DNA from: Gemmatimonadota bacterium
GTDB taxonomy: Bacteria; Gemmatimonadota; Gemmatimonadetes; Gemmatimonadales; GWC2-71-9
DNA length: 58,600 nt
Direction of reading: 5' to 3'
Assembly (NCBI GenBank): GCA_025350665.1
Contig: JANXXJ010000293.1
Span: 1 to 58,600, forward strand
Part shown: in pieces, positions 45,005 to 58,600 of the stretch
How positions within the stretch are numbered: position 1 is the stretch's first letter
Layout: each line of letters starts with the position of its first letter
Translations under genes and position numbers: made by a program
Notes under the pieces: model-generated
What the model saw: the letters and a program-made list of their open reading frames with translations, nothing else
What the model was told of the DNA's origin: nothing
The model's database searches: none

Positions 45005-45931
45005 TCAGGCGGCCAGGTAGCTCCGCATCCCACTCAGCGAGTCGATCGGCGTGAAGCCGAACCGGTTGATCAGTCCGGCAAGCTGGCGGGTGCCTTCTCC
45101 TCCAACCAAAACCGGAATCCTCGAGCCGAGTCCCGAGGCCAAGGCGGCAAACTCGCGCTCCGTTCCGGTCTCATCAATCGGGAAAACGATACTCAGGCCG
45201 ATCGCCCGGGCGTGGAGCTGGGTCGCGGCCAGGGCGACCTCCTCCCCGGGCAAATCAGGGCCGAGGTAAATGGCTCTCCAGCCGGCTGCGGCGGCGGTCG
45301 CAGCGGCCAGGATGGCTCCCAACTCATGGTGTTGGCCGGATGTCGTAGCGGCAACGAAGACGGGAGCTGTTGGATCGCTCGGGAGGCCGGCCAGCAGGCC
45401 GCTCATGATCTGGCGCACCGTGGCCGTCGTGAGGTGTTCCTGAACGATCCGAAGCCGGCCCTGGTGCCACTGTTCGCCCACCTCCCTCACCAATGGTGCC
45501 ACAACGGATTCCGCAAAGGGCACCGGGCCGAGCAACGTGGCCGCGCGGCGGAGCGCCACATCCAGGGCGGCGCCGTCCATCCAGTGGATCGCCTCGAGGC
45601 AGCGCCGGATGGTTCGCTCGGCAGCATCCTCGCCGGGCGCCGTCTCGGGCGTATCGGATCGGTGGCCAACGGTCTCGTCAAGCAGGCTGGCGACATCGGT
45701 ATCCGGCAGTTCGGAGAGACGACCGATCGAATGGCCGTGAAGCGTGGCCCGCCGCAGGAGTGACAGCCGGCCGACGTCCGACTCGGAATAGAGCCGCTGG
45801 CCTCCTTTGGTCCGGGCGGGTGCGACCACTCCGTAGCGCCGCTCCCAGGCCCGGAGCAACTCAGCGGACAGGCCGGTCCGCTTGAGCACGATCCGCACTG
45901 GAAAGACCGGAGTCTTGGGGTCTGACAGCAT
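45005..45931 (-). CDS. CarH/LitR-like MerR regulator with B12-binding domain
   Basis: The protein has 308 residues. An N-terminal MerR winged helix (VRIVLKRTGLSAELLRAWERRYGVVAPARTKGGQRLY split over 12-48) is followed by a four-helix B12-binding domain and a Rossmann cobalamin domain. The CarH hallmark W-x9-EH is present (W155, E165, H166), as is the base-off His motif, in variant form Q200-x-H202-x-x-G205. CarH proteins bind adenosylcobalamin, repress DNA in the dark as tetramers and fall apart in light. Start ATG 45931 sits so close to its promoter that the mRNA would be leaderless. Confidence 0.88.
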   Translation of the reverse strand: MLSDPKTPVFPVRIVLKRTGLSAELLRAWERRYGVVAPARTKGGQRLYSESDVGRLSLLRRATLHGHSIGRLSELPDTDVASLLDETVGHRSDTPETAPGEDAAERTIRRCLEAIHWMDGAALDVALRRAATLLGPVPFAESVVAPLVREVGEQWHQGRLRIVQEHLTTATVRQIMSGLLAGLPSDPTAPVFVAATTSGQHHELGAILAAATAAAAGWRAIYLGPDLPGEEVALAATQLHARAIGLSIVFPIDETGTEREFAALASGLGSRIPVLVGGEGTRQLAGLINRFGFTPIDSLSGMRSYLAA

Positions 45932-46071: not shown

Positions 46072-47412
46072 CTACTCGTGGAAGGGAGTGTCCGGCTGCG
46101 GGAACGGCCAACGGCGGCCGGCGTCGAACGCCTCGAGTTGAAGGAGGAACGTGCCGACGCCGGCGGCGCCCTGCATGAAGCCCGTCTGGGCAACAAGATT
46201 TGCCGGCTCGGAGCGATTTTCGGCCTGAATCCACCGCAGGCCGGTTTCGTCCTGGGTGGCCCGCTCCAGGGTGTTCGCCACGACGCGCTGCCGCATGGTC
46301 ACGGCGGCCGGCGTGTGATGATAACGGGCGAGATCGACCATGTATTGGCCGATGCCGACGTTGCCGCAGCACTGGCTGATGTTGTTCCAGTACCCGTCGG
46401 TTCGCTGCTCGGGGACGCCGGCGGCAAAGACTCCCTGGTTGAGGGAGTCGACCCAGTTGGCCCATCGTGACTCACCAGTGATCTGGTGGAGGCGATAGAA
46501 CAGTCGGGCCGTGCCGACCGGGCCGTGGCACCAACTGAGGTAGAACCGGTTCTCGCCGCCGCCGCTTTGGTGAAAAATCGTGGTGGCGCCGTTCCGCCGG
46601 GTCGCGATCGCCTCCAGGTAATGGGCGGCCTTGAGCGCGCCTTCCAGGAACCGCCGGTCGCCGGAGTCCTGGTAGAGCGTGGCGAGGAAGTAGCCGACGC
46701 CGGCGGTTCCGTGGGAAAAATTCGGGTAGTTTCGCCGGAATGAAGCCGCCGGGTACCACATCAAACCGCCCTCGGCCGCCTCCCCGGTGACCAGGAGGCG
46801 TTCGCCGGCCTTGACCGCTTGCGTCAGGAAATTGCGGTCCTTCCATTCACGGGCAGCCGCCAGCAGAACGAGCCCGGTCCCCGCCATTCCGCTGATGATG
46901 TCGTTTGAATCACTGGTCGCGCCGCGTTGACCGATCCGTTCGGCGGCCTGGCGGGCCGCCGAGCCGTACCGGGCGCCTCCGCCTGCCTTCGCTAGCGCCA
47001 GCAACGTGTAACCCAGGCCTCCGAGGCCCGTGTAGAGCCCGTTGTCGAGCTCCTCCGGTTTCGCCGTCATCTGTCCGATCAGATGATCGGCGCCGGACTG
47101 GGCCTTCGCGAGCCACTGCGGGTCATGATTGGCGGCGTGGAGGGCCGCAAAGAACAAGACGACGCCCGGCATGCCGCTGTAGAAATCCAGCCCCGCCGAA
47201 TCGGGCTTCAGCGGATCGGCGGGCCAGCGGGTCCCGCCGTCGCCCAGCTGGGAGCTCCGGTCGATCCATCGAGCCACTTCAAGGGCATTCGCCAGGAACG
47301 GTCGCGGTGCGGAGCGAGCGCGCCGGAGGTGGTGAAGCCACCCGTGCGGCAGGCCCACGGCCGCCGCCGCGAGCGAGGTTTGGGAAATCCAGGCGCGACG
47401 ATCCATGGTCAC
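46072..47412 (-). CDS. Exported LanC-like (lanthionine synthetase fold) protein, CCG type
   Basis: This 446-residue protein from GTG 47412 overlaps the previous stop (GTGA). The N-terminus DRRAWISQTSLAAAAVG is a Tat-like signal. The alpha/alpha toroid shows repeated G-G motifs (LYTGLGGLGYTLLAL, GMAGTGLVLL) and LanC active-site blocks: S233-H234-G235, W294-C295-H296-G297 and Q347-C348-C349-G350. Zinc ligands would be C295, C348 and C349; standard LanC has Cys-Cys-His (CHG), whereas the CCG form is known from promiscuous ProcM-type LanM cyclases. No dehydratase or precursor peptide is visible nearby. Export and a non-lanthipeptide role are inference. Confidence 0.82.
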   Translation of the reverse strand: MTMDRRAWISQTSLAAAAVGLPHGWLHHLRRARSAPRPFLANALEVARWIDRSSQLGDGGTRWPADPLKPDSAGLDFYSGMPGVVLFFAALHAANHDPQWLAKAQSGADHLIGQMTAKPEELDNGLYTGLGGLGYTLLALAKAGGGARYGSAARQAAERIGQRGATSDSNDIISGMAGTGLVLLAAAREWKDRNFLTQAVKAGERLLVTGEAAEGGLMWYPAASFRRNYPNFSHGTAGVGYFLATLYQDSGDRRFLEGALKAAHYLEAIATRRNGATTIFHQSGGGENRFYLSWCHGPVGTARLFYRLHQITGESRWANWVDSLNQGVFAAGVPEQRTDGYWNNISQCCGNVGIGQYMVDLARYHHTPAAVTMRQRVVANTLERATQDETGLRWIQAENRSEPANLVAQTGFMQGAAGVGTFLLQLEAFDAGRRWPFPQPDTPFHE

Positions 47413-49055
47413 CGGGGCGCACCCCGGTAGCCGGGACCGCGAATCACGCGGCCGGGCTTGGCACCGGTGTATTGGCCATTCTCGAACACTGCCACGCCGT
47501 TGACGAAGACGGCATCAATGCCGGTCGAGAGCGTCGCGGGTTCGGCGAATGTCGCCCGGTCCTGGACGGTGACCGGGTCGAGAATGACCAGGTCGGCCGC
47601 GAGGCCTGGCGCGATTCGTCCTCGGTCGTAGGCCATGATCTCGTTGGCGGCCACGGCGCTCATTCGATGGATCGCCCCCTCCAAGCTGAGGGCGCCGAGG
47701 TCGCGGACATATCGGGCAAGAACGCGGGGGAATGCGCCGTAGCCTCGCGGATGGACCGCGAATCCGGTGGCGGCAGGGCCGGCATCCGTATCGAACGAGG
47801 TAAACTCTTCCCGCATTGCCTTGATCTTGTTCGCCTCGGACATGCTCTGGGGCATCGCGAACGCCTCAGTTTGAGCGATCGCGAAGAAAACCGCCCAGGG
47901 ATCCTGGCCGACGGCGCGGGCGATGGCTCCGATTGACTGCCCGTTGTACGCCTGGTAGGCCTGCAACGTCAGGCCGGCGACGACCACGCGATCCCAGTTC
48001 TTGCCCACATGGGCGAACCAGTTTTCCCAGCCGCCCGTCGTCTCCATGTCGCGCCGCATCTCGGACTGGACCGCCGGATCGCGGAGTTTCTTCATCAGCG
48101 CGTCCTGGCCTTCGGCCGCATGTCTTGGGTGCAGCAATGCCCTGATGCCGAGGCCGTTGTTGATGTAGGGATAGACGTCGACCCCGACTTGCTGGCCGTC
48201 GATGCGGGCGGCGCGAATCCGGGCGAGTGCCTGATCCATCTTGCCCCAGTTCGCCTGGCCGGCCGTCTTCAGGTGATAGATGTGCACCGGGGTCCCGGCC
48301 GCTTTGCCGATCCGGAGCGCTTCTTCAATTGCCTCAAGCAGGCGATCGCCCTCGTTCCGCATGTGGGTGAAATAGCGACCGCCATATTCGCCGGCCACCC
48401 GGGTCAATTCCGTGATCTCCGCTTCGGAGCCGTAAATCGCCGGTGGGTAGATCAACGACGTGGAGACGCCGATGGCGCCGGCTTCCATCGCTTCGCGGAC
48501 CAGGGCCCGCATGCGGTCGAGCTCTTCGGGTGTGGCCTGTCGGTCGGTGTCGCCGATCACCAGCTGGCGGATCTGCGTGTGGCCGACCGTTTGGGCCATG
48601 TTCATCGGCATGCCGGCCTGGTCGAGCCTGGCGAGGAACTCCCGCATCGTGCGCCATCCGCGGCGGGTGCCCTGGGCCTCGCTGAGCGGGGCGTCGCTTT
48701 CGCCCTCGCCGGCATTGATCGTCGTGATCCCCTGTGAGATCAGGTTGAGCGCGGCGGCCGGATCGAGCAGAAACGGAGCAGCCGTCTGCCCCATCATGTC
48801 GATGAATCCGGGCGTGACGGTTTTTCCGGTGGCATCGACCGATTTGCGCCCGAGCGACGGAGCGATGCGGCCGATCGCCGCGATCCGTCCGTCGAGAACG
48901 CCGATGTCACCCCGATACCAGGGGGCTCCCGTGCCGTCGATGATCCTGCCCCCGTGAATGACGACGTCGTATCGGGGAGACTGCGCCCCTGCGGCGGGCG
49001 GCGGGCTGAGGGCCAGGAGACCGAGGGCCAGCAGCCATTTCGCTTTCAGTTCCAT
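47409..49055 (-). CDS. Secreted N-acyl-D-amino-acid deacylase-like amidohydrolase
   Basis: This 548-residue protein has a signal peptide (LLALGLLALSPPPAAGAQ). The amidohydrolase fold is clear (YDVVIHGGRIIDGTGAPWYRGDIGV at the start, HPRGYGAFPRVLARYVRD near the end). The metal site is altered: the usual PGFID-x-H-x-H reads PGFIDMMGQT, and the usual GNCG-type cysteine segment reads INAGEGES. His in YFTHMRNEGD and VHIYHLKTAG remain. It is thus a subfamily with a changed metal centre, so D-aminoacylase activity is uncertain. It overlaps both flanking genes (10 bases with the dehydratase and 4 with the LanC-like gene). Confidence 0.82.
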   Translation of the reverse strand: MELKAKWLLALGLLALSPPPAAGAQSPRYDVVIHGGRIIDGTGAPWYRGDIGVLDGRIAAIGRIAPSLGRKSVDATGKTVTPGFIDMMGQTAAPFLLDPAAALNLISQGITTINAGEGESDAPLSEAQGTRRGWRTMREFLARLDQAGMPMNMAQTVGHTQIRQLVIGDTDRQATPEELDRMRALVREAMEAGAIGVSTSLIYPPAIYGSEAEITELTRVAGEYGGRYFTHMRNEGDRLLEAIEEALRIGKAAGTPVHIYHLKTAGQANWGKMDQALARIRAARIDGQQVGVDVYPYINNGLGIRALLHPRHAAEGQDALMKKLRDPAVQSEMRRDMETTGGWENWFAHVGKNWDRVVVAGLTLQAYQAYNGQSIGAIARAVGQDPWAVFFAIAQTEAFAMPQSMSEANKIKAMREEFTSFDTDAGPAATGFAVHPRGYGAFPRVLARYVRDLGALSLEGAIHRMSAVAANEIMAYDRGRIAPGLAADLVILDPVTVQDRATFAEPATLSTGIDAVFVNGVAVFENGQYTGAKPGRVIRGPGYRGAPR

Positions 49056-50005
49056 GACAGGCCTCTGAACTGATCAAGGTTGACGTTGCCACCGCTCAAC
49101 ACGCAGGCCACACGAGATCCGGGCGGCAGGCCAATCAAGCCAGCCCGCAGCGCGGCCACCGGGGCGGCCGCGGCCCCTTCGACCACGAGCTTGCATCGCT
49201 CCATGATCCAGAGGACCGAATCGAAGATGTCGGTGTCCGGCAGCGTCACGATGTCGTCCACGTAGCGCTGGCAGACGGAGAAGGTAATCTCTCCCACGGT
49301 GCGGACGCGGAGTCCGTCGATGACGGTGCGGCAATCGATCGTCACGATCCGGCCCGCGGCGAGGCTCTCCTTCATGGCCGGGCCGTCGGACGACTCAACA
49401 CCGATGATTCGAATGTTCGGGTTGTGGCTCTTCGCGGCCATCGCCACGCCGGAAATCAGCCCGCCCCCGCCAATCGGGACGACGATCGCGTCCACGTCGG
49501 GCCAATCAGAGACGATTTCGAGGCCCAGGGTGCCCTGGCCGGCGATCAGGTCGGGGTCATCAAAGGGGCTCACGTAGATCAGGCCTTCCGTCCGGACCAG
49601 TTCCTTGGCCTTCTCGTTGGCCTCGTCCCAGATTCGGCCATGGAGCACCACCTCGGCGCCATAGGCTCTGGTGGCGGCTACTTTCGAGGGCGTCGCATTC
49701 TCCGCCATGCAGACGACCGCCCGGACGCCGTGAATGCTGGCGGCGAGAGCCACGCCCTGGGCATGATTGCCGGCCGAGGAGCAGACGATGCCCCGCTGTT
49801 TCTCCTCCGGCGTCATGAGAGCCAGCTTGTTGAGGGGGCCTCGGATCTTGTAGGCCCCGACCCGTTGGAACATCTCAGCCTTGAGGCGCACCTCGTACCC
49901 GCTGAGGTCCGACAACTGGCGTGACCCGAGCAGGGGCGTGTGGTGGATATGGCGGCCGATTCGCTCCCGGACTGCCCGGAAATCGTCAATCGTCAGGTCT
50001 AGCAT
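49046..50005 (-). CDS. PLP-dependent threonine/serine dehydratase
   Basis: This 319-residue protein from ATG 50005 is the short (catabolic, TdcB-like or serine racemase-like) form without the C-terminal ACT regulatory domain. PLP lysine is in RVGAYKIRGPLNKL, the phosphate-binding glycine loop is VVPIGGGGLISG, and SSAGNHAQGVA is the substrate loop. It converts L-threonine to 2-oxobutyrate and ammonia or, in relatives, racemises serine. Being coupled to an N-acyl-D-amino-acid deacylase relative, a role in D-Ser or D-Thr metabolism is possible (inference). Confidence 0.92.
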   Translation of the reverse strand: MLDLTIDDFRAVRERIGRHIHHTPLLGSRQLSDLSGYEVRLKAEMFQRVGAYKIRGPLNKLALMTPEEKQRGIVCSSAGNHAQGVALAASIHGVRAVVCMAENATPSKVAATRAYGAEVVLHGRIWDEANEKAKELVRTEGLIYVSPFDDPDLIAGQGTLGLEIVSDWPDVDAIVVPIGGGGLISGVAMAAKSHNPNIRIIGVESSDGPAMKESLAAGRIVTIDCRTVIDGLRVRTVGEITFSVCQRYVDDIVTLPDTDIFDSVLWIMERCKLVVEGAAAAPVAALRAGLIGLPPGSRVACVLSGGNVNLDQFRGLSWN

Positions 50006-50098
50006 CAAACCAAGCCTCGGGTGGAGTGGGTGGGGGCCACGAACGGAGCCGATGGGAATCTCGCTCCGGGGCGCCGTCCGAGCTACCCTGGCGGGCAT

Positions 50099-54361: not shown

Positions 54362-55120
54362 TCAGCGCCCGAAGCGGGCGGCGGCTTCGGTGAAGGTGTG
54401 GAACAGGTGCCGCGTCCTCGGATCTTTGACTTCGAGAACTTCCGGGTGCCATTGAACGCCGACCACGAAGCCGTCGCCAGGCCGTTCGACGGCCTCGACC
54501 AAGCCGTCGGGGGCGAAGGCCGCCGGGATCAAGTCGTGTCCGAGGCGCTTGAGCCCCTGGTGGTGCATGCTGTTGACCGTCACCCGCCCGGCGCCGAACG
54601 CCGTTGCGAGCCGACTGCCGCCGGCCAGCTCGACCTCGTGAGCCAGGTGATCGCGCTCGAAGCCGGCCGTCGGGAAATAGTCATGCTTGATCGCGTTGGG
54701 CAGTTGATCTTCGAGGTCCTGATGGAGGGTGCCCCCGAGGGCGACGTTGATTACCTGGAGGCCCCGGCACAGCCCGAGCAGCGGCTTGCCGTCTTCGATT
54801 GCCCACTCGGCCAGTTGCAGTTCGACGGCGTCTCTGGCAGGGTCGGTATTTCCGAGCTTGGGATGCGGCATCTCGTGATACCGAGCCGGCTCCATGTCCA
54901 CGCCGCCGGCAAGGAGAATCCCGTCCAATCGTTCGTAGACGCAGCGCAATGTATCCGGGTCGTCGTGGATCAGCGGAACCATCCAGGGAACCGCGCCCGC
55001 ATCGGTCGCGGCGTAGAAGTACCGCTGGTTCATGACCCAGGACGCCGGCAGCCCGCCGGGGATGCCGTCGATGGCCTGCAGGGTCTGGGTCGGTATGCCG
55101 ATCGTCGGCCGGTATTTCAT
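54362..55120 (-). CDS. Class-I glutamine amidotransferase-like / gamma-glutamyl hydrolase (PuuD-like)
   Basis: This 252-residue peptidase C26 protein has Cys118 in LLGLCRGLQVINVALGG and His and Glu in VVGVQWHPE. In E. coli PuuD cleaves gamma-glutamyl-GABA. Here it closes a cluster of amide-forming ligases, so it may remove a gamma-glutamyl group or trim a ligase product. It lies 80 bases downstream of the GCS2 gene, with an 11-bp hairpin between, which could lower its expression relative to the ligases. There is no signal peptide. Confidence 0.9.
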   Translation of the reverse strand: MKYRPTIGIPTQTLQAIDGIPGGLPASWVMNQRYFYAATDAGAVPWMVPLIHDDPDTLRCVYERLDGILLAGGVDMEPARYHEMPHPKLGNTDPARDAVELQLAEWAIEDGKPLLGLCRGLQVINVALGGTLHQDLEDQLPNAIKHDYFPTAGFERDHLAHEVELAGGSRLATAFGAGRVTVNSMHHQGLKRLGHDLIPAAFAPDGLVEAVERPGDGFVVGVQWHPEVLEVKDPRTRHLFHTFTEAAARFGR

Positions 55121-55160
55121 GGCGCCGTCAAGATAATCAGGGTAAGAGGATCATCGGCAC

Positions 55161-55196
55161 GGGTGGCCCGGAACCAAAGCAAGGCCCGGGCCACCC
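55161..55196 (-). terminator. Perfect 11-bp intercistronic hairpin
   Basis: 55161-55171 pairs exactly with 55186-55196 around a 14-base loop, in the 80-base gap between the ligase and amidotransferase genes. No U-run follows on the minus strand. It may be an attenuator or mRNA-stability element. Confidence 0.5.
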
Positions 55197-55200
55197 GGCC

Positions 55201-56307
55201 CTACAGGGTACCCTCGGCCGTCTCAACGATGAGCTGGTCGACCACGGCCTTGAGGTCGCCGGTCCGCTCGAACGTGGCCAATTGGCGGTCGGCGCTGGTC
55301 CCGTTCTCGAAAATGGTGAAGGCGTACTCGACCTCTTTCCGACTGCCGAGCTCGTCGAGAACGTCATCGACGAACCATTCGATCAGCTCCCGGATCAGGG
55401 TCCGGGCCGGCAGCTCCCTGCTCTTGCCGAAGTCGATCATCTTGCCGTCGAGTCCATACCGGCAGGCCCGCCACTTGTTCTCTTCGATGAACGTCGCCGA
55501 ATACTGGCGCCAGCTCAGGTTGTCCCGGCGGAGCTTCCAGACCTTGGCGATGATCGCCTGGAACAGCGCGGCGACGCAGACGGCCTCGTCCACCCGGGTG
55601 CAGACATCGCAGATCCGCATCTCGAGCGTGGGATAGCTCCAGCTGGGCCGAATGTCCCACCAGATCTTCGACGCATTCGGAATGCTGCCGGTACCGACCA
55701 GGGTGTTGACGACATCCTCAAACTCGCTCCACGAATGGAGGCTCCGAGGAATCCCGGTCCGGGGAAAGCTCCGGAACACAATGCTTCGATACGATTTGAG
55801 ACCGGTCTTCCGGCCCAGCCAGAACGGCGAACTGGTCGAGAGGCAGAGCAGGTGCGGCATCATGTAGCGCACCGCGTTCATCGCCTCGATGAGGAATTCC
55901 TTGTCCTCGATACCCACGTGGACGTGGGTGCCGAAGATCAGGAGCCGCTGAGCCAGTTCCTGGAGGTCCTCCTTGACACCCATGTAGCGTTCGAGCGGGG
56001 TTATCTCCTGTTCCAGCCAGCTCGAGAACGGATGGCTGCCCGCGGCCACGACCTTGAGGCCGTTCTTGGCTGCCAGATCCATGACCAGGCGTCGGAGCCG
56101 GACCAGTTCGGCGCGGGCTTCGGCCGGGGTATGGCAGACCTTGGTGCCGACCTCCACCATGGACTGGTGCAGCTCCGGTTTGATCTCGCCCAGCAGCACC
56201 GATTCTTCCTTGAGAATTTCGGTGATGTACGAGCGGAGCTCCCGGGTCTGGGGGTCGATGATCTGGTACTCTTCTTCGATTCCGATCGTAAGGCTGGGCG
56301 GTTTCAT
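55201..56307 (-). CDS. GCS2-type glutamate-cysteine ligase-like carboxylate-amine ligase (YbdK-like)
   Basis: This 368-residue protein from ATG 56307 begins LTIGIEEEYQIIDPQTRELRS, the GCS2 signature with metal-binding Glu residues. HPFSSW, FGTHVHVGIEDKE and SYPTLEMRICDVCTRVDEAV follow in family order. The family joins an amino group to the gamma-carboxyl of glutamate using ATP (YbdK makes gamma-glutamylcysteine weakly). The gap from the permuted ATP-grasp gene is 46 bases. Together with two other ligases and an amidotransferase it probably builds a small peptide-like metabolite; the partner amine is unknown. Confidence 0.92.
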   Translation of the reverse strand: MKPPSLTIGIEEEYQIIDPQTRELRSYITEILKEESVLLGEIKPELHQSMVEVGTKVCHTPAEARAELVRLRRLVMDLAAKNGLKVVAAGSHPFSSWLEQEITPLERYMGVKEDLQELAQRLLIFGTHVHVGIEDKEFLIEAMNAVRYMMPHLLCLSTSSPFWLGRKTGLKSYRSIVFRSFPRTGIPRSLHSWSEFEDVVNTLVGTGSIPNASKIWWDIRPSWSYPTLEMRICDVCTRVDEAVCVAALFQAIIAKVWKLRRDNLSWRQYSATFIEENKWRACRYGLDGKMIDFGKSRELPARTLIRELIEWFVDDVLDELGSRKEVEYAFTIFENGTSADRQLATFERTGDLKAVVDQLIVETAEGTL

Positions 56308-56353
56308 CAGGGCCGTTCCGGTTGAGCTGAAAGGTGAAAGACGGAACGGCCGG

Positions 56354-57700
56354 TCATCGCGGCTCGACGACGAAGGTCGGCACGGTGGAGCCACCGCCTG
56401 CCGTCACGTTCACGAGGGTTGCGGTTGACACCCGGGTGAGGCAGCCGTCCACGAACGCGCCGTCGAAGCAGAATGGCGCGGTGTCGACTATGCGGTCGGC
56501 ATAGACAACGGCCCCGTCGGCCAGGCTCGGGAAGGTTTCGGACGGGAGCCCGATTCGGCGCTGAACGATGTACGGCTGCTCCAAGGCCCGGGCAACTTCC
56601 GTCGCCCATCGGCCGTCCTCCACTTCCCAGCCGAGAATGACGCCGGCCCCACCGTAGTCGTCGTTCGGTTTGAGCACCAGCTGGTCGCGGTTGGCCGCGA
56701 TGTAGGGAAGAAGGTCGATGGTCTTGCCGTCGAGCCTGGTGGTCCGCTCTTCGACCACCCGGGTCCAGGGCACGTGGTCATCGATCACCGAGCGTTCGGC
56801 GGTCGTGAACAGATGATGGTTGCGTTCGTCGCTCAGGACGGCGAGGCTGGCCTTCTTGTGGAGGATCTTGGAGCGGAACGGGTTGACCATGCAGACGGCG
56901 CCGTCCCGAACGGCCCGGACCATCGGGTGATCCAGGCCGCCCTGCTCGATCAACTCGTTGATGAGCACCCGTTTGTAGATCAGGTCGATGCGAACGCCCT
57001 CGGAGTAGAGTCCGCCGTCGTGATAGTCCACCTCGCCCGGGTCGCCGATGATGCATTGCAGGCCCAGGCCGGCGAAGTAATCCCGGAACAGGCGGAACTC
57101 GCTCTGGGTCGGCACTTCCTTCCAGTCGAGGATACCAATGGTCGGTCTTTTCGACCCGCCGGAGAACCGGCGATACGCCTCGAGGAGTGAATGGAGCACG
57201 TGATGCCGGACCGGGAGCGGACTGATCGCGAAGCGGGACCGGAATCCGCGCAGGGCGGGCAGCGCCAGAAAGAGCTCCGTGAGCGCATCGTTGTAGCCCG
57301 AGCCGGCGGGGGTCTCGGCGTTGTACTCCGTGAACCGAAGCCGGCCATCATCGGGCGAGAAGAATGCATCGAGTCGCGAGACCGGCGATGCCACGGTCTT
57401 CGGATCCTCCAGCGCCAGCGTTCGCTCCCAGGGCTCCAGCCGGAACTGGTCCAGGACGGCCGGATTGGCGATCGCCGCCGCCAGGGCGGTGTCGAACGCG
57501 CCGAGCAGACTGCCGATCCGGCTCCGCATCTCGTCGTACTGATGCCTCGCCAGAAAGCGGGGCCTCAGGACGGTGCACAGTGGGCGGTCGCCGAAACGGA
57601 GCCCGCGTCTCGCCAACTCGGCATGGAGCCATTCGCCTGACTCGACGCCGATCGGGCCGTCGAGCGCTGCATGCCAGGCCTCGATGGCCGGGTCCGTCAT
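56354..57700 (-). CDS. Circularly permuted ATP-grasp ligase
   Basis: This 448-residue protein has the permuted order of CP-ATP-grasp enzymes: substrate part FTEYNAETPAGSGYNDALTE early, a middle Rossmann region (RPTIGILDWKEVPTQSEF), MVNPFRSKILHKKASLAVL, and the ATP-binding block LVLKPNDDYGGAGVILGWE near residue 360. ATP-grasp enzymes activate a carboxylate as acyl-phosphate and join it to an amine. Its ATG overlaps the stop of the preceding ATP-grasp gene (ATGA), so both are made in a fixed ratio. Confidence 0.88.
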   Translation of the reverse strand: MTDPAIEAWHAALDGPIGVESGEWLHAELARRGLRFGDRPLCTVLRPRFLARHQYDEMRSRIGSLLGAFDTALAAAIANPAVLDQFRLEPWERTLALEDPKTVASPVSRLDAFFSPDDGRLRFTEYNAETPAGSGYNDALTELFLALPALRGFRSRFAISPLPVRHHVLHSLLEAYRRFSGGSKRPTIGILDWKEVPTQSEFRLFRDYFAGLGLQCIIGDPGEVDYHDGGLYSEGVRIDLIYKRVLINELIEQGGLDHPMVRAVRDGAVCMVNPFRSKILHKKASLAVLSDERNHHLFTTAERSVIDDHVPWTRVVEERTTRLDGKTIDLLPYIAANRDQLVLKPNDDYGGAGVILGWEVEDGRWATEVARALEQPYIVQRRIGLPSETFPSLADGAVVYADRIVDTAPFCFDGAFVDGCLTRVSTATLVNVTAGGGSTVPTFVVEPR

Positions 57701-58600
57701 GCCGGTCCGGGGCGCACGGGCCGGCCCTTGAGAAAATTCTCCCAGCTGGGCCGGGGTGTGGCCGGGGGCGCCTTGGCGAGGCGGATCGCCATGTCAGCCA
57801 TCGCCTTGACGACCCACTCGAAATGGGTCGGCGTCAGAGAGTGGATGTCCATGTCGGGGGCTGGATTCATGAAGTCGATCGCGTAGGGAACTCCGTCCCG
57901 GATCGCCCATTCGATCGAGTTCATGTCGTACCCGAGTGCCCGAACCAGCGTCAATGAGTCGGCGACCACGCGATCGTGCAGTGCCGTGGGGAGGAAGTCG
58001 AGTTCAGGATGATATTTCCGGGCCTTGGGGTCGTACTTGATCGGATAGATGACTTCCTGGCCGATGCACAGGCAGCGAACGAATTCGTCCCATTCGATGA
58101 ATTCCTGCACGATCATCGTGAGCAGCCCGGACCGGTCGTAGTTGTACAACAGCTCTTCGAGGCTTCGGCAGACGTAGACTTCTTTCCATCCGCCGCCGTG
58201 GGCGTCCTTGAGAATGCAGGGCAGTCCCACATGGTCGACGATCGCCTGCCAATCGAGCGGAAACTCCAGGTTTCGCAAACTCTCCGTGTGGACGATGCCA
58301 GGGACGTATTCCTTGTTCGGCACGACGACCGTTTTCGGACTCGCGAGACCGAGCGAGGTCGCCAGCGTCGCGCCGAAGAACTTGTCGTCCGCGGTCCACA
58401 TGAAGGGATTGTTGACGACAGTGGCGCCCCGCAGTACCGCGTGCTTGAGGAAGGTCCGGTAGAACGGGACCTCGTGAGAGATCCGGTCGATGATGACCCG
58501 GTACTCCGCCGGATCGTCCATGTGCGGCGCGCCGACCTTCACGAATTCGGCCACCACACCTTCGTGACGACTGTTGACTTCCTCGATAAACGCCGGGGGC
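57697..58600 (-). CDS. ATP-grasp ligase, partial (runs off window)
   Basis: The open frame continues past base 58600, so the N-terminus is missing; 301 codons are visible, and GTG 58557 is not taken as start because the frame upstream (PAFIEEVNSRHEG) continues naturally into it. The ATP-grasp fold shows PFMWTADDKFFGATLATSLGL, the lysine and glycine loop LKDAHGGGWKEVY, VQEFIEWDEFVRCLCIG and the metal-ligand end IDFMNPAPDMD. It resembles D-Ala-D-Ala ligase/RimK-like proteins. It begins the visible part of a four-gene ligase cluster. Confidence 0.85.
   Translation of the reverse strand, partial: PPAFIEEVNSRHEGVVAEFVKVGAPHMDDPAEYRVIIDRISHEVPFYRTFLKHAVLRGATVVNNPFMWTADDKFFGATLATSLGLASPKTVVVPNKEYVPGIVHTESLRNLEFPLDWQAIVDHVGLPCILKDAHGGGWKEVYVCRSLEELLYNYDRSGLLTMIVQEFIEWDEFVRCLCIGQEVIYPIKYDPKARKYHPELDFLPTALHDRVVADSLTLVRALGYDMNSIEWAIRDGVPYAIDFMNPAPDMDIHSLTPTHFEWVVKAMADMAIRLAKAPPATPRPSWENFLKGRPVRPGPA

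What the first reader, a model, noticed from the sequence alone, without database searches (positions are those of the whole stretch)
46072..47412. Apparently exported LanC-like protein with a CCG (three-cysteine) zinc site
Seen: a Tat-like N-terminus (DRRAWISQTSLAAAA) on a LanC toroid whose zinc ligands read C295, C348, C349 (WCHG and QCCG), with SHG at 233-235. Known: LanC cyclases work in the cytoplasm with Cys-Cys-His ligands; a CCG motif is known from highly promiscuous ProcM-type lanthionine synthetases. Inference: an extracytoplasmic thioether-forming or thiol-adding enzyme not tied to a dehydratase, perhaps acting on a cell-envelope or xenobiotic electrophile. No lanthipeptide precursor or LanB/LanM gene was seen.
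Basis: partly seen in the sequence, partly recalled or inferred. Interest (0 to 1): 0.7.

Follow-up and report, generated by a model that had tools for sequence, protein, structure and literature searches.

The report
Exported three-cysteine LanC-like zinc protein
This soil-type bacterium encodes a zinc protein related to the enzymes that close thioether rings in lanthipeptide antibiotics, but it is sent out of the cytoplasm, has a three-cysteine metal site and no antibiotic-making partners, and belongs to an apparently undescribed exported family found in at least three bacterial phyla.

Summary
In detail: the ORF at 46072-47412, on the MINUS strand, encodes a LanC-fold protein (Pfam 136 bits; AlphaFold pLDDT 90.5; best folds CuvL, MadC, LanCL, NisC) with C295/C348/C349 and the catalytic-type histidines H234 and H296. 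It is one member of a family: 38 of 395 Gemmatimonadota genomes, plus Acidobacteriota and rare Proteobacteria. The zinc triad, both histidines and a family-specific W-x-Q-A-E-x-R...Q-T...Q pocket are kept in 43-44 of 44 core members. Gemmatimonadota members carry Tat-type N-termini, whereas acidobacterial orthologues carry Sec or lipoprotein-type signals, so localisation rather than route is conserved. No LanM, LanB or HopA1 dehydratase, and no second LanC domain, was found in the host genome; 30 of 38 relatives also lack all three dehydratase families. The three-cysteine site is not inherited from Gemmatimonadota three-cysteine LanM enzymes, the ProcM-type ligand set (AU p = 0.0125). Most likely it is an extracytoplasmic zinc-thiolate enzyme that adds a small thiol to, or removes it from, an unsaturated (dehydroamino-acid-like) substrate. 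The chemistry is inferred, not shown. New variant of a known fold family.

The parts
46072..47412 (-). Exported LanC-like protein (446 codons from GTG; ATG start at 47406 likelier)
   Evidence: PF05147 1.5e-39; AlphaFold pLDDT 90.5, pTM 0.89; Foldseek best PDB hits all lanthionine cyclases or LanCL proteins
47299..47412 (-). N-terminal Tat-type signal region, (V/M)TMDRRAWISQTSLAAAAVGLPHGWL...
   Evidence: RR motif kept in 31 of 32 aligned orthologues; pattern scan against background
46711..46713 (-). H234 in NFSHG, equivalent to the enolate-protonating His (His219 of LanCL1, His212 of NisC)
   Evidence: 43 of 44 core members; profile alignment to LanCL2 AHG; role of the LanCL1 residue from PMC9934072
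46528..46530 (-). C295, zinc ligand 1 (WCHG)
   Evidence: 43 of 44 core members; aligned to the WCHG Cys of LanCL2
46525..46527 (-). H296, equivalent to His277 of LanCL1 (Tyr in bacterial stand-alone LanC)
   Evidence: 43 of 44 core members; PMC9934072; class I LanC of the same phylum have WCYG
46366..46371 (-). C348 and C349, zinc ligands 2 and 3 (QCCG)
   Evidence: 44 of 44 core members; aligned to CHG of LanCL2 and QCCG of CuvL
46213..46233 (-). Family-specific pocket motif W394-x-Q396-A397-E398-x-R400
   Evidence: 43-44 of 44 core members
46171..46188 (-). Family-specific Q409-T410-G-x-M-Q414
   Evidence: 43 of 44 core members for Q409, T410 and Q414
47409..49055 (-). Upstream exported amidohydrolase (Amidohydro_3, D-aminoacylase-like), 4-bp overlap with the LanC gene
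   Evidence: PF07969; immediately upstream in 5 of 5 same-genus loci
49046..50098 (-). PLP-dependent threonine/serine ammonia-lyase-like gene, 10-bp overlap with the amidohydrolase
   Evidence: PF00291; best NCBIfam TIGR01127 just under its cut-off; present in all 4 same-genus loci long enough to show it

Best explanation
It is an exported, stand-alone LanC-fold metalloenzyme of a conserved family. Shown by sequence: a LanC toroid; a Cys-Cys-Cys triad in the positions of the LanC zinc ligands; the two catalytic-type histidines of LanCL1; export signals of three kinds in different members; no lanthipeptide dehydratase or second LanC domain in the host genome. Inferred: the three cysteines hold zinc in the cell envelope; zinc binds and activates the thiolate of a small thiol (or of a thioether product); H296 stabilises and H234 protonates the enolate; so the enzyme catalyses thia-Michael addition to, or the reverse elimination from, one specific unsaturated substrate held by the invariant W-x-Q-A-E-x-R...Q-T...Q pocket. 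The substrate would be a dehydroamino-acid-bearing peptide or a small enone-like compound met outside the cytoplasm, and the role scavenging or repair rather than antibiotic synthesis.
For: LanC fold. Ligand and histidine columns align with LanCL2 and CuvL and are kept in 43-44 of 44 core members from several phyla. WCHG gives the LanCL-type His where class I LanC of the same phylum have WCYG. Export signals: Tat-type in Gemmatimonadota, Sec or lipoprotein-type in Acidobacteriota, Tat plus a lipobox-like site in Robiginitomaculum L042. No LanM, LanB, HopA1 or second LanC domain in the own genome, with positive controls in relatives. 30 of 38 genomes with the gene have none of the three dehydratase families, and the two with a full-length LanB (G118, G139) carry a second LanC domain that groups with class I cyclases.
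Against: No biochemistry, no zinc measurement and no known substrate. A sister clade has lost the SHG histidine, and L170 has lost the cysteines as well, so some relatives may be non-catalytic. Residues that bind glutathione in LanCL1 are mostly not kept here, so the thiol partner is unknown. Gene neighbours are conserved only within a genus or family. The window protein lacks a clear signal-peptidase site.
Confidence: 0.5

Rival explanations
1. It is an exported lanthipeptide cyclase that closes rings on a peptide dehydrated elsewhere.
For: Same fold and catalytic residues as lanthionine cyclases. A few genomes with the gene also have LanM, LanB or HopA1.
Against: Own genome and 30 of 38 relatives lack LanM, LanB and HopA1, and in the own genome this is the only LanC domain. 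Genomes with full-length LanB have their own extra LanC. No conserved precursor-like neighbour was seen.
Confidence: 0.07
2. It works in the retro-Michael (C-S lyase) direction in the envelope, releasing thiols from thioether-linked amino acids or peptides as part of peptide or amino-acid scavenging.
For: LanC reactions are reported to be reversible (Yang and van der Donk 2015, listed as a reference in PMC9934072). Gemmatimonadota neighbours are exported amidohydrolases, an M19 dipeptidase, and cytosolic PLP ammonia-lyases or decarboxylases.
Against: Amidohydrolases and peptidases are common in these genomes and the sets differ between lineages; equilibrium usually favours addition.
Confidence: 0.2
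3. It is a non-enzymatic zinc or thiol sensor or binding protein that keeps the LanC fold.
For: Related clades have lost the catalytic His, and L115 has lost the zinc ligands. Acidobacterial L167 is fused to DUF5107 and TPR domains.
Against: Strict retention of both histidines and the pocket residues in the core family.
Confidence: 0.13
4. The toroid has been recruited for other zinc or hydrolytic chemistry, for example on envelope glycans or peptides, with no thiol involved.
For: Weak fold-level likeness to GH76 mannanases and AGE epimerases.
Against: No acidic glycosidase pair is among the invariant residues; the conserved set is the LanC zinc-thiolate set.
Confidence: 0.1

Closest known systems
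Eukaryotic LanCL1/LanCL2 (C-glutathionylating enzymes)
   Same: Stand-alone LanC toroid, WCHG motif with the His277-type residue, His219-type residue, no dehydratase needed
   Different: Exported; third ligand Cys instead of His; of the LanCL1 glutathione contacts, His274, Lys317, His323 and Glu374 correspond by position to S293, N343, C349 and Q414, and Arg364/Asp367 have no ungapped counterpart (by inspection of printed sequences)
Cyclase domain of class IV lanthionine synthetases (LanL, e.g. CuvL)
   Same: Best PDB match by profile and by fold; CuvL also has QCCG; LanL is the nearest outgroup in the tree, weakly (95/73, long branches)
   Different: No kinase or lyase domains, no precursor; exported
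ProcM-type and other three-cysteine LanM enzymes
   Same: Cys-Cys-Cys zinc triad (PMC11251773, PMC10783134)
   Different: No dehydratase domain; separate clade from Gemmatimonadota three-cysteine LanM, one shared clade rejected at p-AU 0.0125; ProcM itself was not in the tree
NisC/MadC-type class I LanC
   Same: Stand-alone cyclase fold
   Different: Class I LanC of this phylum have WCYG and CHG and sit in a distant clade with LanB partners
'Lanthionine synthetase LanC family protein' of Actinomycetota and Bacillota
   Same: Same clade, Cys-Cys-Cys site, stand-alone
   Different: No export signal seen; pocket residues differ, and the Mesobacillus and Nonomuraea proteins lack the SHG His

Membership tests
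LANC_like (PF05147) | Profile score over the curated cut-off and alpha/alpha toroid fold | tested here: met
   136 bits against 23.2; fold search
LANC_like (PF05147) | Three zinc ligands in the LanC positions | tested here: met
   By alignment: C295, C348, C349; geometry and metal content not measured
Lanthipeptide cyclase (class I-V) | Partner dehydratase (LanB, LanM, kinase-lyase or HopA1) in the genome | tested here: not met
   None in the own genome; positive controls in relatives
Lanthipeptide cyclase (class I-V) | Precursor peptide gene nearby | tested here: inconclusive
   None seen among ORFs of 80 aa or more near the gene; shorter ORFs were not screened
Lanthipeptide cyclase (class I-V) | Cytoplasmic protein | tested here: not met
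   Export signals across the core family; prediction only
LanCL (C-glutathionylation) | His219- and His277-type catalytic residues | tested here: met
   H234 and H296
LanCL (C-glutathionylation) | Glutathione-binding residues | tested here: not met
   By inspection of the printed LanCL sequence and PMC9934072 contacts; not a structural superposition
LanCL (C-glutathionylation) | Adds glutathione to Dha/Dhb | not testable with these tools
   Needs an in vitro assay
ProcM-type three-cysteine LanM lineage | Common descent of the Cys-Cys-Cys cyclase domain | tested here: not met
   Separate clades each 100/99; AU p 0.0125; only Gemmatimonadota LanM represented the lineage

The most novel reading that the evidence does not exclude
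A previously undescribed family of extracytoplasmic LanC enzymes performs zinc-thiolate Michael chemistry on a specific substrate in the envelope of Gemmatimonadota and Acidobacteriota. That would be the first LanC-type reaction outside the cytoplasm and outside lanthipeptide biosynthesis in bacteria.
Probability: 0.4. Interest if true: 0.8.

Novelty: new variant of a known kind. Interest (0 to 1): 0.6.

Why it matters
LanC chemistry is known from lanthipeptide synthesis in bacteria and dehydroamino-acid repair in eukaryotes. A conserved exported bacterial family with an intact active site, a three-cysteine zinc site and no dehydratase would mean a second bacterial use of the fold, perhaps an envelope counterpart of LanCL repair, and would offer a natural setting to ask what the third cysteine does for reactivity. 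It also warns that a LanC hit alone does not mark a lanthipeptide cluster.

Tried and rejected
Paper searches for LanC-like proteins with Tat signals (none), in the periplasm (one paper whose title and abstract deal with Streptomyces gene clusters) or in Gemmatimonadetes (two, neither describing an exported LanC in the passages read) found no description; PMC11251773 reports three independent three-cysteine clades but, in the passages read, no exported family. A functional link through conserved neighbours was considered and not claimed: ilvA-amidohydrolase-LanC is genus-level, TolB-amidohydrolase-LanC-PLP decarboxylase is mainly one genus with two further cases of the decarboxylase, and acidobacterial neighbours are unrelated. 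A 'first genome copy only' artefact was rejected by 38 genomes. Single origin of all three-cysteine cyclases was rejected.

Full report
What is there. The ORF 46072-47412 lies on the minus strand and encodes 446 residues from a GTG that overlaps the stop codon of the gene before it; an ATG two codons downstream is the likelier start. It matches LANC_like PF05147 at 136 bits, and NCBIfam LanM, LanL and LanKC models only below their cut-offs. AlphaFold gives a confident model (pLDDT 90.5, pTM 0.89) whose best solved matches are CuvL, MadC, LanCL2, plant GCR2, LicM2, LanCL1 and NisC.

Active site. A profile of 32 orthologues aligned to PDB sequences places NFSHG on the AHG of LanCL2, WCHG on WCHG, and QCCG on the second Cys-His pair; CuvL itself has QCCG. 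In 44 core members C348, C349 and W394 are invariant, and C295, H234, H296, H281, Q396, A397, E398, R400, Q409 and Q414 are kept in 43. The exception at most of these positions appears to be the divergent L083, as its row in the alignment suggests; itself prints counts without row names. In LanCL1 the equivalents of H234 and H296 protonate the enolate and hydrogen-bond to the substrate carbonyl (PMC9934072). That paper gives Tyr for bacterial stand-alone LanC at the second position; class I LanC of this phylum indeed have WCYG, while this family has the LanCL-type His. A strictly kept pocket across phyla argues for one specific substrate (inference).

Export. Gemmatimonadota orthologues have RR-type N-termini with an uncharged stretch: 31 of 32 aligned sequences have the RR and 27 of 32 pass a stricter pattern that 74 of 758 ORFs called in the same loci pass. 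Acidobacterial orthologues instead start with Sec-type signals (L158-L162, L164) or lipoprotein-type signals ending in a Cys (L163, L165, L166, L168), and Robiginitomaculum L042 has RR plus a lipobox-like VSSC. My lipobox pattern caught only L163, L168 and L042; L165 (AAC) and L166 (LSC) were judged by eye. Different routes with one destination is the strongest argument for extracytoplasmic function. Relatives in Streptomyces, Nonomuraea and Mesobacillus show no signal. The Pseudomonadales protein L043 has no recognisable signal either.

Independence from lanthipeptide synthesis. In the own genome this is the only LanC domain, and LanM, LanB and HopA1 are not found; the same searches find them in other Gemmatimonadota. 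Of 38 Gemmatimonadota genomes with the gene, LanM occurs in 4 (G167, G019, G122, G394), LanB in 3 (G118, G139, G168) and HopA1 in 1 (G182), leaving 30 with none; in about 31 the exported protein is the only LanC domain. Genomes are 81-100% complete, so single absences are not proof.

Phylogeny. The Gemmatimonadota and proteobacterial sequences of A1 form one clade (100/99) apart from a three-cysteine LanM clade (100/99), and a tree joining the two is rejected (p-AU 0.0125). In one search, which included long-branch rows, the non-zinc paralogue L115 fell inside that clade; one search left such rows out. A wider tree puts exported and signal-less stand-alone three-cysteine proteins together (99/99), with class IV LanL as a weakly supported neighbour (95/73) on long branches. 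One subclade (L131, L133, L169, L170, L173) has lost the SHG histidine, and L170 the cysteines too. ProcM itself was not in the trees.

Distribution. 38 of 395 Gemmatimonadota genomes at high score. In Acidobacteriota 24 of 396 match at E 1e-30 or better, of which some 16 belong to this clade and the rest are other LanC types or fragments. Rare in the alphaproteobacterial (2 of 337) and gammaproteobacterial (1 of 369) samples.

Neighbours. In the own genus an exported amidohydrolase lies directly upstream in 5 of 5 loci, with a threonine/serine ammonia-lyase-like gene before it in the 4 loci long enough to show it. Another genus has TolB-amidohydrolase, LanC, PLP decarboxylase; the decarboxylase also follows LanC in two other lineages. 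Acidobacterial neighbours share nothing. I draw no substrate from this.

Conclusion. Shown by sequence: fold, ligand set, catalytic histidines, export signals, absence of dehydratases. Inferred: zinc occupancy and thiol-Michael or retro-Michael catalysis in the envelope. It works like a LanC/LanCL enzyme on paper; it is not filed as a lanthipeptide cyclase because a defining feature was tested and not met.

Noticed in passing
L172:7394-10888 (-), L174, L085-L087: Gene trios of an APH-type kinase (PF01636) and a HopA1 lyase (PF17914) next to a stand-alone LanC, in Acidobacteriota and Gemmatimonadota; the LanC of L085-L087 and L172 were seen to have Cys-Cys-His motifs. This looks like class V lanthipeptide machinery with a LanC cyclase.
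   Followed up: partly
window 54362-58557 (-): Peptidase C26, GCS2 glutamate-amine/cysteine ligase, circularly permuted ATP-grasp and RimK-like ATP-grasp genes in a row, a probable gamma-glutamyl or peptide-ligase cluster.
   Followed up: no
L115 (G167:C813:64000-65600): A second LanC-like protein in the same genus that has lost the zinc ligands (WAHG, no CC) and lies in a 694-residue open frame.
   Followed up: no
L167:4820-9145 (+): Acidobacterial fusion of DUF5107 and TPR repeats to the exported LanC-like domain.
   Followed up: no
L157: A contig filed under an acidobacterial genome whose LanC locus is nearly identical to Gemmatimonadota f5 loci; probably mis-binned.
   Followed up: no
window 45005-45931 (-): MerR-type regulator with a B12-binding domain just downstream of the LanC gene; a homologue lies near the LanC gene in L032 and L048 but was not found in L049, L050 or L051.
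   Followed up: partly
L061, L065, L069, L071-L073, L076: Many Gemmatimonadota members have MCxxC or MC-rich residues just before the RR motif.
   Followed up: no
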